This document shows positions 15,314 to 58,823 of a stretch of 64,000 nucleotides of DNA, in pieces. The stretch is taken from NCBI RefSeq assembly GCF_016906535.1, contig NC_057384.1, positions 806,001 through 870,000 of the forward strand, given 5' to 3'. A program made the position numbers and the translations under genes. Source of the DNA: Rhizoctonia solani (lineage: Eukaryota; Basidiomycota; Agaricomycetes; Cantharellales; Ceratobasidiaceae). The notes below the pieces were generated by a model, which was not told the origin of the DNA, made no database searches, and saw nothing but the letters and a program-made list of their open reading frames with translations. Every line of letters starts with the position of its first letter. Within the stretch, counting starts at the first letter, position 1.

Positions 15314-17000
15314 TGTTAAGAGTTGTGTAAGTACAGGAGTAAGAAAGAATTACTATATACAAATGTATATGGGAATAACCAAAAACTCATATTAAGTATT
15401 AGAACATATGCACAGAATACATGCACAATACATGCTAGTGTTATCAGGAATAAAGAACTTCTAACAAGTACCCTGCCAACTATGAAGTGCAGGTGGTTGG
15501 TTATGTATAGTACCTTAGACTAGAGTTACTTAAGCCTAAGTGACTAAGGGTATGTATACTTAAGGTCTCTGGGAAAGTACCTTGAGTAAGGGGGTTGCCT
15601 GACTAATGTACAGAATTTATAGGATTTGCCTATTAAGTATAGGACTTATAGATGCTTAAGTAAAACTTAAGACTTATGGGGTTCACCTAAAGTGGACCTA
15701 GGACTTATGAGATATTGTAGATAAAGCTACCTACAATGTAGGAGTAGGGATGGGTGAAACACTATCACTCAATCACAACAATCCTTACAGTATTGGTGCA
15801 CTATACTCAATGTTGAGCTCAACAACTGTGACAGTCAAGGGGCACAGGGCCACAGTAAGTACACTGATAGGTTACCCTGTGTCTGTTGGGACTGGCCTAT
15901 GGTCTTAGTGCACTGAATAATCTCCTATGCTATTTACAGTGAGTCAATCACTAAAGTAAATGCACAGATTAGCTGTCAAAGGCTTTTGTATATGTCAGTA
16001 TATAAGAGTAAAAGTAAAAGTAGGATGTATTAGAAGCATCTTCACAGGGTACTTTTATACCCTGAGAAGGCACACAAACATGTATATACATGATTGATAT
16101 CAAGAGGGGTACAGGAGGTACAGGTGGCAACTGAAACACTTGAGGGAGCCAATACTCTGGTACATGGTAGATAACATCAGTCCCTGATATTTGCCCCAAG
16201 GCAGTATTTACCTATGTGGGTCCTTGGATGTCCCAAGGCTAAGTGTTTCATCCCTGGAGTAAACAGTCCCAAAGGTATGATACCTCTGAATTGGGTACTT
16301 ACAGTAAATAGGGCATAACTCTGCCAAATGTTAGCTGTTCTGAGTGTTTGAGCTGTTGTTATGGAGCGCACAAGCAGGTGCACCTAAGCACAAGCAATGT
16401 GGCAGTGTGGGATGCCTGGGTGATGGAGGGAAGGCACATATAGTGCATTGGCACTTAAGTGCTGATTAAGCACCAGAACACTTGCCTATGCAACAGGGGG
16501 GGCCCTGAACAATTCTGTGTGTAGCTGCAAGATGGAATCTTGTATGATAAATACTACAAACAAGGAGAATATTGGTAGTTACTGTTTATCCACTCAGCTG
16601 AATTTATGCATATTTTAATGAGTGAGAAAACAGTGTACATGCAGAAGATATTGCATATTCAGGGTATTCCTTAGACTTAGGGGTTGTGCAAAGGTTGCAA
16701 TTGGAAAGAGGGGCCTTTAAAACCTTAGTTTGCATCATTATCTCATTTTATATACCATTGTGTTACTTGTGTAAATGGTAAAATAAGTACAGATTAGTGG
16801 AGAAATTGTCATAAACAGAGGAAAATAGAACTAGCTGGAATTGAACCAGCTTGACCACTAAGCCATAGAGCCCTATTATCCCTCTGCTGACAACCCATGA
16901 TCACACCTGCTACCTCCCAAATTTGGGCTTGGGCCAGCATGCAACCACTTGTACTGGTCTGTTTGACTGTATCCAGGACAGAAATGTCATATCCATAACA
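15314..17000 (-). repeat. LTR-D, right reverse copy, hosting a solo TRIM LTR
   Basis: On the plus strand it runs TGTTAAGAGTTG...GTCATATCCATAACA. Without the 16807-16980 insertion and its TSD it is about 1508 bp, the same as the left copy. The left flank AAGTA and right flank ATTTC are the reverse complements of the left copy's outer and inner flanks. Confidence 0.9.
16807..16980 (-). repeat. Solo TRIM LTR (174 bp), TSD GAAAT
   Basis: Reverse copy of the 173-bp LTR of the miniature element at 57788-58222. Both flanks are GAAAT (16802-16806 and 16981-16985). It carries the same tRNA-like segment and lies inside LTR-D. Confidence 0.92.
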
Positions 17001-19316: not shown

Positions 19317-20370
19317 GGATATACAAGTCAAGCATATATCAATACTTGGTTGGGCCACTTTTGGCTTTGATCCAAGCCTGAATCCTCCTAGGCATAATCT
19401 CTATCAAATCCTGGCACTTCTGGGCACTACATTTGTCCCAAATCTCCTGCACCCTCTCCCATGATTCCAACATCCCACTTGCAGGGGTTTCACAGCTATA
19501 AAGTTCCCTCTTGATTTGATCTCAAAGGTTTTCAATTGGATTGAGGTCTGGGGAGTTAGCAGGCCACTCACAGACCTCTAAGCCATTCTCTTGGAACCAG
19601 TCCTGTACAATATGGGCCTTGTGGGAGCTTGCATTGTCTTGCTTAAATATGACCTTCTCCATGTCCAACTGTCCTGGACACAGTCACATGACCAGTACAA
19701 GTGGTTGCATGCTGGCCCAAGCCCAAATTTGGGGGACAGCAGTGAGAGACCCATCTATCTTGCACATAAGACCAGAGCCTTCCCACCCCATGCATGCCCC
19801 AATCATGATATGGCCTCCTCCATGCTTGTGGTGTTTTGATGATCTGGTGGGGCTGAGGTGCCTAGCCAACCCTTTATAGGCATAGTGGTGCCCATCTGAC
19901 CCAAATCTGTTGATCTTGGTCTCATCTGACCATTGGATCCTCTTCCAGTCATCAATTGTCCAGTGCTGGTGTGCCATAACAAATTCAAAGCATGCCTTGA
20001 TATGTTCCTTTGTCATAGCTGGCTTTTTGGGCTTGACAAAAGGTACCACACCAGCTTTCTGCACTGCCCAATGCACATTAAGGCTTGAGACAGGGACCCC
20101 ATTTGTGCTAGAGAGCTCTTGAGCAACTAGGTGTGGGGTTGTGGGGGCAGGGCCAGTCAACAAGTGGGTGGCATGGCAGATATTGGTTGGTGAGAGCTTA
20201 GAAGGGTGGCCACCAGAGTGCTTGGGGAGCTCAGGACAGTGCATTGCCCTTATCCTGCTAATAATTCCAGCACTGACACCAGTTTGAGAGTGAATTTCTG
20301 AAAAGTGAAGGCCTTTTTTGAGCTTATCAACAACATTCTGGACATCAGAGGGAGGCAAAGCTTTAGGCAT
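19317..20370 (-). pseudogene. Tc1-like transposase, broken
   Basis: Minus strand from the Met at 20370: an N-terminal helix-turn-helix region (MPKALPPSDVQNVVDKL), then the first catalytic Asp in IQWSDETKINRFGSDG and GGHIMIGACMGWEG. The reading then runs into a 65-bp fragment of the TRIM LTR at 19670-19734, which replaces roughly 30 residues. Beyond it are the second Asp (FKQDNASSHKAH) and the DLNPIENL motif with the catalytic Glu. A TGA replaces the usual Trp after NL. The DDE residues are present but the gene is dead. Confidence 0.9.
19670..19734 (+). repeat. TRIM LTR fragment inside the Tc1 transposase
   Basis: It matches the first 65 bp of the TRIM LTR (TGTCCTGGACACAGTCACAT onward), ending in the CAAATTTGGGGG region. 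There is no TSD and about 90 bp of host coding sequence is missing, so it looks like filler DNA at a repaired deletion rather than transposition. Confidence 0.72.
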
Positions 20371-31255: not shown

Positions 31256-31896
31256 TGTCACAACCCACTCCATTCTTTTCCACAAGTCCTGACCTAGTGA
31301 AGCCTCTAACACACTCATGTTGCACGTCAACATGACCGCAAGCACGCATATACTTGTGCTTAGGCACTCAGAACCTCTGGGTTCCCACAGATAAGAGACT
31401 TATGGTCAACATGGCTGGACTTAGTGATATTCTCTAAGTCCAGGTCACATGACCTCCCCCCCTCCAGTCCTTTATCAAATACTATACTGAACTACTACAG
31501 ATTTGAGGTGGGGGGGATGACATAATCTCTTCTATAATAATATATTTGTCCTGGACACAGTCACATGACCAGTACAAGTGGTTGCATGCTGGTCCAAGCC
31601 CAAATTTGGGGGTAGCAGGTGTAATCATGGGTTGTCAGCAGAGGAATAATAGGGCTCTATGGCTTAGTGGTCAAGCTGGTTCAATTCCAGCTAGTTCTAT
31701 TTTCCTCTGTTTATGACAATATCATTCAGATCTTGCTGCAGACTACCTTAACATTGGCCCATGGCAAGGGGGGGGGGGAGTGCAACATCCCCCAGCAACA
31801 TATATTAATCATATATCACTGTGCATCATATATACTATATATATCTTTGACAGTGGATATATATGGTAATAACCCTTCCAAATATGGGTTATGACA
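31256..31896 (+). repeat. Solo LTR-G hosting a TRIM LTR, TSD CCACC/CTACC
   Basis: It begins TGTCACAACCC and ends GGGTTATGACA, matching the LTRs at 49820 and 55399. Without the TRIM LTR it is about 464 bp. The uninterrupted copies show the empty site of the TRIM insertion. Confidence 0.88.
31547..31718 (+). repeat. Solo TRIM LTR (172 bp), TSD ATATT/ATATC
   Basis: It runs TGTCCTGGACA...TTTATGACA. It lies in LTR-G; the other LTR-G copies give the empty site (AATATAATATTCAG). Confidence 0.88.
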
Positions 31897-36137: not shown

Positions 36138-36310
36138 TGTCCTGGACATGGTCATATGACCAGTACAAGTGGTTGCATGCTGGCCCCAGCCAAAATTTGG
36201 GGGGTAGCAGGTGTAATCATGGGTTGTCAGCAGAGGAATAATAGAGCTCTATGGCTTAGTGGTCAAGCTGGTTCAATTCCAGCTAGTTCTATTTTCCTCT
36301 GTTTATGACA
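36138..36310 (+). repeat. Solo TRIM LTR (173 bp), TSD GGTTC
   Basis: It runs TGTCCTGGACATGG...TTTATGACA, with GGTTC at 36133-36137 and 36311-36315. The acceptor stem of its tRNA-like segment is the best paired of all copies (TAGAGCT with AGTTCTA). Confidence 0.94.
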
Positions 36311-45848: not shown

Positions 45849-46020
45849 TGTCCTGGACAGGGTCACATGACTGGTACAAGTGGTTGCATGCTGGCCCAGC
45901 CCAATTTTGGGGGGTTGCAGGTGTAATCATGGGTTGTCAGCAGAGGAATAATGGGGCCCTATAGCTTAGTGGTCAAGCTGGTTCAATTCCAGCTAGTTCT
46001 ATTTTCCTCTACTTATGACA
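45849..46020 (+). repeat. Solo TRIM LTR (172 bp), TSD TTCCC
   Basis: It runs TGTCCTGGACAGGG...CTTATGACA, with TTCCC at 45844-45848 and 46021-46025. It is inserted in Gypsy-F gag. Confidence 0.94.
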
Positions 46021-57495: not shown

Positions 57496-57787
57496 TGAGA
57501 CCTAATACAAGCACCTCTTGGGCCATTGAAGTTGTATATATATGTAGTACATCCACCTTGCTTGGTGCAGAAGTCAAGGGCAGCTTAGATGGAGTAGAGG
57601 CACAAGCTTTGCCTTTCCAGCCACAAGTTGTGTTAGAGATAGACAAAGGATTTGTGCTAGACATTGCAGCTAAGTGTACATGATATTTGGTTGGAGACAG
57701 CTGCAATAGGGGCGCTTGCTATCTGTTGACAATGGCCCCTATCCTGTGTCTTAGACAATAAATAATGATTACTTGATGAATATATGC
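57496..57787. other. Unassigned stretch before the TRIM
   Basis: No gene or repeat recognised. Ends in the TATGC target site of the TRIM. Confidence 0.4.
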
Positions 57788-57891
57788 TGTCCTGGACACG
57801 GTCACATGACCAGTACAAGTGGTTGCATGCTGGCCCAAGCCCAAATTTGGGGGGTAGCAGGTGTAATCATGGGTTGTCAGCAGAGGAATAA

Positions 57892-57941
57892 TAGGGCTCT
57901 ATGGCTTAGTGGTCAAGCTGGTTCAATTCCGGCTAGTTCTA
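57892..57941 (+). ncRNA. tRNA-like segment in the TRIM LTR, lacking an anticodon arm
   Basis: Acceptor stem TAGGGCT (57892-57898) pairs with AGTTCTA (57935-57941) over 7 bp with two G-T pairs. The D-arm GCTT/AAGC (57904-57918) contains an A box (TGGCTTAGTGG). The T-arm GCTGG/CCGGC with loop TTCAATT (57917-57933) contains a B box (GGTTCAATTCC). D- and T-arms overlap by two bases and no anticodon or variable arm exists. The same segment recurs in every TRIM LTR, so it is not an ordinary tRNA gene. Confidence 0.75.
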
Positions 57942-57962
57942 TTTTCCTCTGTTTATGACACT

Positions 57963-57972
57963 TGGTAGAACT
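57963..57972 (+). other. TRIM primer-binding site
   Basis: TGGTAGAACT is the exact complement of AGTTCTA plus CCA, the 3' acceptor strand of the LTR's own tRNA-like segment with a CCA end. Confidence 0.8.
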
Positions 57973-58222
57973 TGGAAGGACACCAGTTCTATTCCCACCA
58001 TGGGAAAAACTTTTCACAGGGGCGCTGCCCACCCAAAAAAGGGGGGCAGTGTCCTGGACACGGTCACATGACCAGTACAAGTGGTTGCATGCTGGCCCAA
58101 GCCCAAATTTGGGGGGTAGCAGGTGTAATCATGGGTTGTCAGCAGAGGAATAATAGGGCTCTATGGCTTAGTGGTCAAGCTGGTTCAATTCCGGCTAGTT
58201 CTATTTTCCTCTGTTTATGACA

Positions 58223-58823
58223 TATGCAATTGCCTTAAGTCAGCAACACCCCAATAAGGTAAGAGATTGGCAGGATGTTATCTTATCAGTGCAATCAAGT
58301 GTCATTTCATAGCTAAATACATCCTTAATAAATAGCAGGGGGGGAGGTCAACTCCCCCCTGCTAGATAGGTGATCCAGATATTTAGAACACCCCTCCTTC
58401 AGCACCTAGATCTATATCCAATGCATTTCACATTGAGTTCCACGGTGCACACTGCATCCGGGCTGGGCCTCACCTCTAAATGAGCACTTTAGAAAGGCTC
58501 GACCGTTCTAAATCCCTTACGGAAACGTACCCACTCACAAGCATGTCACATGACCCACGAGACGTAAGGATGGGAAGAGGGCCATATTCCCTGCGCTCCC
58601 GTTCTTGTGAGTCCTTGGGGGAGACCTGGAGGATTCTAGGCCCTGTGAATTACAGAGTGCCTGGCAGTTGATCAGATTTAAATTGGACTGAGTAGTAGAT
58701 ATTCCAGCAATGCAGAAAATACGGTTTACATTTGTTCTTGTACACTACAGGCAATCCAAGCATTCAAGGTAATACACATCTCGAAAACTGCATTTCTTAT
58801 GCTTGCCTATAATCGCTGGTTGA
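58223..58823. other. Unassigned transition zone
   Basis: CpG becomes frequent from about 58430. It includes a G/C-rich hairpin at 58334-58363 (AGCAGGGGGG-type stem, loop GTCAA). No gene recognised. Confidence 0.4.
58334..58363. other. Strong 12-bp hairpin
   Basis: AGCAGGGGGGGAG pairs with CTCCCCCCTGCT with one bulged G and a five-base loop. Confidence 0.75.

What the first reader, a model, noticed from the sequence alone, without database searches (positions are those of the whole stretch)
57788..58222. TRIM whose LTR holds a tRNA-like fold that matches its own primer-binding site
Seen: a complete 435-bp miniature LTR element with TSD TATGC, PBS TGGTAGAACT and a purine tract. Each LTR has a 7-bp acceptor stem, a D-arm with A box and a T-arm with B box but no anticodon arm. 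The PBS is the exact complement of the acceptor 3' strand AGTTCTA plus CCA. Known: plant Cassandra TRIMs carry 5S rRNA promoter sequence in their LTRs. Inference: this is a fungal analogue that captured a tRNA from the same lineage as its primer, perhaps giving Pol III transcription or supplying its own primer-like RNA. I know of no described element of this design.
Basis: partly seen in the sequence, partly recalled or inferred. Interest (0 to 1): 0.92.

Follow-up and report, generated by a model that had tools for sequence, protein, structure and literature searches.

The report
Miniature retrotransposon with tRNA-like ends
A 435-letter mobile element in the fungus Rhizoctonia solani carries a shrunken tRNA-like piece in its end repeats; elements of this kind were named Helenus in 2024, but here the site where copying starts matches the tail of that tRNA-like piece, which may or may not mean the element supplies its own primer.

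Summary
The element is real: two identical 173-bp LTRs around 89 bp, TSD TATGC, PBS TGGTAGAACT, purine tract. The genome, Rhizoctonia solani by named proteins on contigs of equal length, holds at least 22 full copies plus single LTRs (42 rows). The LTR segment with box A and box B is no chance motif: 6 in the window, 0 in 60 simulated windows. Alone it folds as acceptor, D and T arms. The design is not new: Kojima 2024 (PMC10886601) named TRIMs with tRNA-like LTRs 'Helenus'. What departs from that paper is the PBS: Kojima reports no complementarity between tRNA-like sequence and PBS; here AGTTCTA + CCA pairs exactly. Best match among 49 tRNA genes examined is 6 nt, and pattern scans gave no better tRNA, but the tRNA set is incomplete. 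Only 7 nt are encoded, a 7-nt match anywhere in the LTR is ordinary (p 0.16), and the boxes lie 7 nt apart, close for Pol III. A seeming 7.3-kb autonomous partner is an unrelated self-priming Gypsy nested in one copy. Verdict: a Helenus-type TRIM; self-encoded primer open.

The parts
57783..57787 (.). left target-site duplication TATGC
   Evidence: same 5 bp at 58223-58227
57788..57960 (+). 5' LTR, 173 bp, TG...CA
   Evidence: (0 mismatches to the 3' LTR)
57891..57945 (+). tRNA-like segment of the 5' LTR with TTTT at 57942-57945; acceptor + D hairpin + T arm, no anticodon arm
   Evidence: fold of 57891-57944; motif count
57902..57912 (+). box A-like TGGCTTAGTGG
   Evidence: 286 exact matches of the extended 17-nt form TGGCTTAGTGGTNAAGC in the genome
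57920..57930 (+). box B-like GGTTCAATTCC, 7 nt after box A
   Evidence: 194 exact matches of GGTTCNANNCCNNNTAGTTCTA in the genome
57935..57941 (+). AGTTCTA, 3' end of the tRNA-like segment, reverse complement of PBS nt 4-10
57961..58049 (+). internal region, 89 bp, too short to code for a retrotransposon protein
57963..57972 (+). primer-binding site TGGTAGAACT (TGGTAGAACTTGG to 57975)
   Evidence: 27 exact 13-nt hits in the genome, 23 in copies of this element, 4 elsewhere without LTR similarity
57985..57991 (+). second AGTTCTA; can hide the PBS in a hairpin
   Evidence: fold of 57961-58049, z -2.40
58035..58046 (+). purine tract AAAAAAGGGGGG before CAG and the 3' LTR
58050..58222 (+). 3' LTR, identical to the 5' LTR
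58153..58207 (+). tRNA-like segment of the 3' LTR
58223..58227 (.). right target-site duplication TATGC
31547..31718 (+). solo LTR of the same family, TSD 4 of 5 (ATATT/ATATC)
36138..36310 (+). solo LTR of the same family, TSD GGTTC
45849..46020 (+). older solo LTR of the same family, TSD TTCCC
16807..16980 (-). single LTR of the same family (inner end extrapolated from LTR length)
19670..19742 (+). first 73 bp of an LTR, truncated before the tRNA-like segment

Best explanation
It is a recently amplified Helenus-type TRIM: a non-autonomous LTR retrotransposon whose LTR holds a tRNA-derived segment that has lost its anticodon arm. Shown: it has moved as an LTR element (identical LTRs, 5-bp TSDs, PBS, purine tract, at least 22 near-identical full copies, many solo LTRs). 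Inferred: an unidentified autonomous LTR retrotransposon supplies the proteins; the tRNA-derived segment is, or descends from, a promoter; first-strand synthesis starts from an RNA ending in CCA that pairs with TGGTAGAACT. Most likely that RNA is a cellular tRNA not found here (about one in two); the rivals below concern this step.
For: Structure. Copies: 22 rows cover at least 433 of 435 bases, of 42 rows; 40 of 330 candidates scored, so a lower bound. TSDs: exact in 10 of 11 distinct full copies assessed (the window copy among them), 4 of 5 bases in the other; L004 and L006 share TSD and left flank, so are perhaps one insertion; one further copy, L014, is partial and was not assessed. Solo LTRs: 51 of 79 full-length LTR hits in 80 fetched loci have an exact 5-bp repeat on both sides. 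Boxes A and B beyond chance and three-arm fold. [quoted passage not shown]
Against: No Rfam tRNA match. Boxes A and B are 7 nt apart, against 31-93 nt in yeast tRNA genes (PMC4937561 passage), so Pol III use is doubtful. No autonomous partner sharing LTR or interior was found, with 40 of 330 candidates scored. Kojima links fungal Helenus with Copia; no Copia link was tested here.
Confidence: 0.75

Rival explanations
1. Self-encoded primer: the LTR makes a ~50-nt tRNA-like RNA that ends at TTTT, is trimmed after AGTTCTA and given CCA; this RNA primes reverse transcription of the element.
For: The isolated RNA folds with acceptor and T arm. Among tRNA ends examined none matches more than 6 nt, and pattern scans gave none.
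Against: Box spacing (7 nt) and a minimal TTTT (for yeast values); only 7 nt are encoded; a 7-nt complement anywhere in the LTR has shuffle p 0.16; the heptamer occurs again at 57985. In longer RNA the tRNA-like fold gives way. Kojima found no such complementarity in Helenus. LTR variants with changed AGTTCTA that were fetched carry no PBS, so covariation could not be tested.
Confidence: 0.15
2. Tf1/sushi-type self-priming: the 5' end of the element's own transcript (AGUUCUAUU) folds onto the PBS and primes.
For: A Gypsy nested in one copy has a PBS that is the exact 13-nt reverse complement of a stretch of its own LTR (0 of 1000 shuffles), so self-priming elements seem to be present. The TRIM shares the TGTC...GACA ends and CT spacer. 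AGUUCUAUU/GGUAGAACU forms a 9-bp stem with two G-U pairs.
Against: Only 7 Watson-Crick pairs; the PBS starts TGG, as for a CCA end, in all 23 copies found by exact PBS (a search that finds only exact matches), while a copied self-primer would give AATAGAACT (inference from how PBS sequences are inherited, recalled). The transcript start is unknown. The LTR-PBS fold is no better than shuffles (z 0.13).
Confidence: 0.2
3. An ordinary cellular tRNA primes, with a partial match or from a gene not found here; the resemblance of the PBS to the LTR segment is coincidence or a U5-PBS RNA stem.
For: Usual for LTR elements; 49 distinct ARAGORN tRNA genes in the fetched loci are not the full set; best match tRNA-Leu(taa), 6 nt. 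94 of the 194 hits were not listed, one search covers only GGTTC T-arms, and all scans assume a TTCRANNC T-loop or a TRGYNNARY box.
Against: Genome scans for tRNA 3' ends with AGTTCTA, GTTCTA or TTCTA, and for matching 5' acceptors, give 5 against 8, 7 against 7, 8 against 41, 43 against 31 and 50 against 47 in the reversed-pattern control; of 37 non-LTR hits, 20 loci standing for 24 were checked with ARAGORN, 0 tRNA genes; 7 loci likewise, 0.
Confidence: 0.5

Closest known systems
Helenus (Kojima 2024, PMC10886601; TRIMp3)
   Same: TRIM under 1 kb, tRNA-like segment with boxes A and B in both LTRs, PBS and PPT, 5-bp TSD, solo LTRs, fungal hosts including Agaricomycetes.
   Different: Rhizoctonia is not in Kojima's Table 1. 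No anticodon arm, boxes 7 nt apart; PBS matches the 3' end of the LTR's own tRNA-like segment, which Kojima states was not seen; partner not known to be Copia.
Cassandra
   Same: TRIM with a small-RNA gene piece in the LTR.
   Different: Cassandra carries 5S rRNA; no 5S match here.
Tf1/sushi self-priming Gypsy elements
   Same: PBS complementary to a stretch of the element's own LTR.
   Different: Match of 7 nt against 11 in Tf1 (PMC7175516 passage) and 13 in the nested Gypsy; PBS begins TGG.
tRNA-derived SINEs (SINE2)
   Same: tRNA-derived head with boxes A and B.
   Different: This has LTRs, PBS, PPT and 5-bp TSDs.

Membership tests
Helenus | TRIM shorter than 1 kb with two LTRs and no room for coding | tested here: met
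   435 bp, 173-bp LTRs, 89-bp interior
Helenus | tRNA-derived sequence in both LTRs (box A TRGCY/YGG, box B GGTTC) | tested here: met
   motifs present in both LTRs, 0 pairs in 60 simulated windows; but no Rfam tRNA match, and Kojima's own Censor search was not repeated
Helenus | PBS and PPT between the LTRs | tested here: met
Helenus | 5-bp TSD in fungi | tested here: met
   10 of 11 distinct assessed full copies exact, 1 with 4 of 5
Helenus | no complementarity between LTR tRNA-like sequence and PBS (reported, not part of the definition) | tested here: not met
   AGTTCTA + CCA pairs with TGGTAGAACT
Helenus | fungal members linked to Copia (reported, not part of the definition) | not tested
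   no autonomous partner found
Helenus | working Pol III promoter (TRIMp3 proposal) | not testable with these tools
   box spacing 7 nt argues against (for the yeast range)
Cassandra | 5S rRNA sequence in the LTR | tested here: not met
   no 5S match at E<=10
Tf1/sushi self-priming | PBS complementary to the 5' end of the element's mRNA | tested here: inconclusive
   7 nt + 2 G-U; transcript start unknown
deletion derivative of an autonomous element with the same LTR | autonomous copy with the same LTRs in the genome | tested here: inconclusive
   only candidate, L009, is a nested unrelated Gypsy; one search scored 40 of 330 candidates

The most novel reading that the evidence does not exclude
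The LTR encodes the element's own reverse-transcription primer: a minimal tRNA without anticodon arm, ended at TTTT, given CCA, and paired over 10 nt with the PBS. I know of no LTR retrotransposon that carries a tRNA-like primer gene in its LTR; Kojima reports no complementarity of this sort in Helenus.
Probability: 0.15. Interest if true: 0.88.

Novelty: new member of a known kind. Interest (0 to 1): 0.42.

Why it matters
If the primer link held, a retrotransposon would be free of host tRNA for priming, and the question Kojima raised and answered in the negative for Helenus would reopen with a concrete, testable case. As it stands the element adds Rhizoctonia to the hosts of tRNA-bearing TRIMs and gives a young, high-copy family in which transcript, primer and Pol III use could be measured directly.

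Tried and rejected
Autonomous partner: one search gave two rows 7.26 kb apart that looked like a Gypsy sharing the LTR and PBS (L009). Rejected: of 35 other rows that begin at its first base I fetched 20, and 20 of 20 begin at TGTCATGACC with no match to the TRIM's LTR or interior before it (L172 and L173 have the same upstream DNA; in L159, L169 and L177 the upstream DNA matches this Gypsy's own coding region). It has its own LTRs and a GGGGG duplication inside the TRIM's purine tract.

Same PBS in other elements: 4 of 27 exact 13-nt hits lie outside copies of this element and show no LTR similarity. 32 hits of GACA-N(0-5)-TGGTAGAAC: 23 are GACACTTGGTAGAAC of this element, 9 are other places, against 11 in the control; the 9 were not looked at further.

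Host tRNA with the PBS complement. Hits that are this family's LTRs: 2 of 5, 3 of 7, 2 of 8 (one fetched), 6 of 43 (five fetched). Not examined: 13 hits, 6, most. Covariation between LTR end and PBS: six loci with AATTCTA or GGTTCTA have no interior.

Conservation of the tRNA-like core, CpG sites left out: four full LTRs in the window located by their first 104 bp, 1 of 168 core sites changed against 21 of 508 outside (Fisher p 0.014); with the left LTR of L009 added p 0.054; box A in 28 LTRs located by box B, 3 of 476 against 49 of 2856 (p 0.048); box B side in 26 LTRs located by box A, 5 of 520 against 27 of 2652 (p 0.57), a set biased to changed B sides. 25 LTRs located by the whole LTR vary too little to tell. 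Dropped before the first count: the 73-bp fragment at 19670, the unchanged LTRs of full copies, the right LTR of L009. A first count over 79 LTRs without this care showed no conservation (1.37 variants per core site, 1.23 in the first 104).

Relatives elsewhere: tRNA-like core, no hit in viral contigs or genome contigs, collections that are not meant to hold fungi. One search's BLAST part failed and is not used; the box A + B pattern was written too strictly, found nothing, and was replaced.

Full report
What is there. The window copy is a complete TRIM at 57788-58222: 173-bp LTRs without a mismatch, an 89-bp interior, TSD TATGC, PBS TGGTAGAACT at 57963 after CT, purine tract at 58035-58046. 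The genome has 40.7 Mb in 16 contigs. One search scored 40 of 330 candidates and listed 42 rows: 22 full copies, 1 partial copy, 1 copy split by an insertion (2 rows), 15 single LTRs, and 2 pieces of an LTR into which another copy had jumped. The full copies are 98-100% identical to the window copy, so the family moved recently. Exact pattern counts give 286 box A segments and 194 box B-acceptor segments. Of 80 loci examined, the interior occurs in 6 (L009-L014) and in none of the 60 loci located by box patterns: most copies seen are single LTRs, 51 of 79 full LTR hits having exact 5-bp repeats on both sides.

The tRNA-like segment. Box A TGGCTTAGTGG and box B GGTTCAATTCC occur together 6 times in the window, in LTRs of this family, and never in 60 simulated windows. 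The same letters in a longer RNA prefer to pair with the PBS. Rfam's tRNA model does not recognise it. Boxes A and B lie 7 nt apart; yeast tRNA genes have 31-93 nt, and yeast terminators are said to need five or six T (PMC4937561, passages seen). I therefore read it as a tRNA-derived remnant whose Pol III activity is doubtful.

Known or not. The design is known. Kojima 2024 (PMC10886601; outline, parts 1-4 of 6 of the text, and legends and tables seen; supplements not seen) defines Helenus as TRIMs with tRNA-derived sequence in their LTRs, in fungi, animals and plants, with PBS, PPT and, in fungi, 5-bp TSDs; Agaricomycetes are included, Rhizoctonia is not in Table 1. A search for 'Helenus', 'TRIMp3' and 'retrotransposon' found 3 papers: Kojima's, a meeting report that cites it (passages), and a butterfly genome paper seen only in the listing. 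Two further searches that named Rhizoctonia (10 of 33 and 10 of 11 papers listed, listings only) showed no title on such an element there.

The PBS match. Kojima writes that no complementarity was found between the LTR tRNA-like sequence and the PBS, and concludes that it does not prime. Here AGTTCTA, at the place where the T arm and the TTTT put the 3' end of the tRNA-like RNA, plus the CCA that is added to tRNAs, is the exact complement of TGGTAGAACT. For a place fixed beforehand the chance is 4^-7; for a 7-nt match anywhere in the LTR it is common (shuffle p 0.16). The place was not chosen blind, so I treat it as a real but modest signal.

Which RNA primes? Genome scans for tRNA 3' ends with AGTTCTA gave no excess over the reversed-pattern control: 5 against 8, 7 against 7, three being LTR variants; for the 5' acceptor, 50 against 47, 7 loci of it checked with ARAGORN and none a tRNA. 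Looser ends: 8 against 41, 43 against 31, six being LTR variants by sequence and 20 loci standing for 24 of the other 37 holding no tRNA gene by ARAGORN. Among 49 distinct tRNA genes in fetched loci the best 3' match is 6 nt, tRNA-Leu(taa). The set is incomplete, and 94 of the 194 hits were not shown, so a host tRNA is not excluded and remains my first guess.

A false partner and a useful one. L009 looked like a 7.3-kb Gypsy between the same LTRs. It is a nested insertion: the Gypsy has its own LTRs; 20 of 20 fetched relatives, of 35 possible, begin at the same TGTCATGACC with no trace of the TRIM before it; and it sits in the purine tract with a GGGGG duplication. Pfam finds protease, RNase H, integrase and chromodomain in its open frames, and nothing in the frame I took for reverse transcriptase (5 frames). 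Its PBS is the exact 13-nt reverse complement of a stretch in its own LTR (0 of 1000 shuffles), the sign of Tf1-type self-priming (Tf1: first 11 bases of the RNA pair with the PBS; PMC7175516, passages). So an LTR-PBS match that fits self-priming exists in this genome, and it is the sober rival for the TRIM; the TRIM's match is much shorter and its PBS keeps TGG.

Conservation. Copies are young. Four LTRs in the window located without use of the tRNA-like part show 1 change in 168 core sites against 21 in 508 elsewhere (p 0.014); other sets give p 0.054, 0.048 and 0.57, and a cruder count over 79 LTRs shows none. Suggestive, not decisive. CpG sites carry much of the variation.

Judgement. A new member, in a host not listed by Kojima, of a kind described in 2024. 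The self-encoded primer is the one part that would be new; I give it about 0.15.

Noticed in passing
L009:752-7576 (G000:C10): Gypsy with chromodomain nested in a TRIM copy; its PBS AGGTCAAGTCTTG is the exact complement of CAAGACTTGACCT in its own LTR, pointing to Tf1-type self-priming. Seen in this one copy only.
   Followed up: partly
L008 (G000:C10:418809-419242) and L009 (G000:C10:794881-802137): Two copies share the same imperfect duplication (CCGAT left, CCAAT right) although their further flanks are unrelated. Unexplained.
   Followed up: no
L011 (G000:C7:1585300-1586300): A full TRIM inserted into a single LTR of its own family, with TSD GCCAG.
   Followed up: partly
L009:501-667: Left LTR of the interrupted copy has several 1-2 base deletions that the right LTR lacks; old decay or assembly errors.
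   Followed up: no
G000:C12, about 66000-90600: Paired hits on opposite strands (66096/90499, 66362/90228, 72959/83618) suggest a large inverted duplication on this contig.
   Followed up: no
L053, L055-L058: tRNA-Lys(ctt) genes carry differing 8-9 nt introns; several other tRNA genes are predicted with introns too.
   Followed up: no
L009:1268-1384 and 1426-1542: Perfect 117-bp direct repeat just inside the nested Gypsy's 5' LTR.
   Followed up: no
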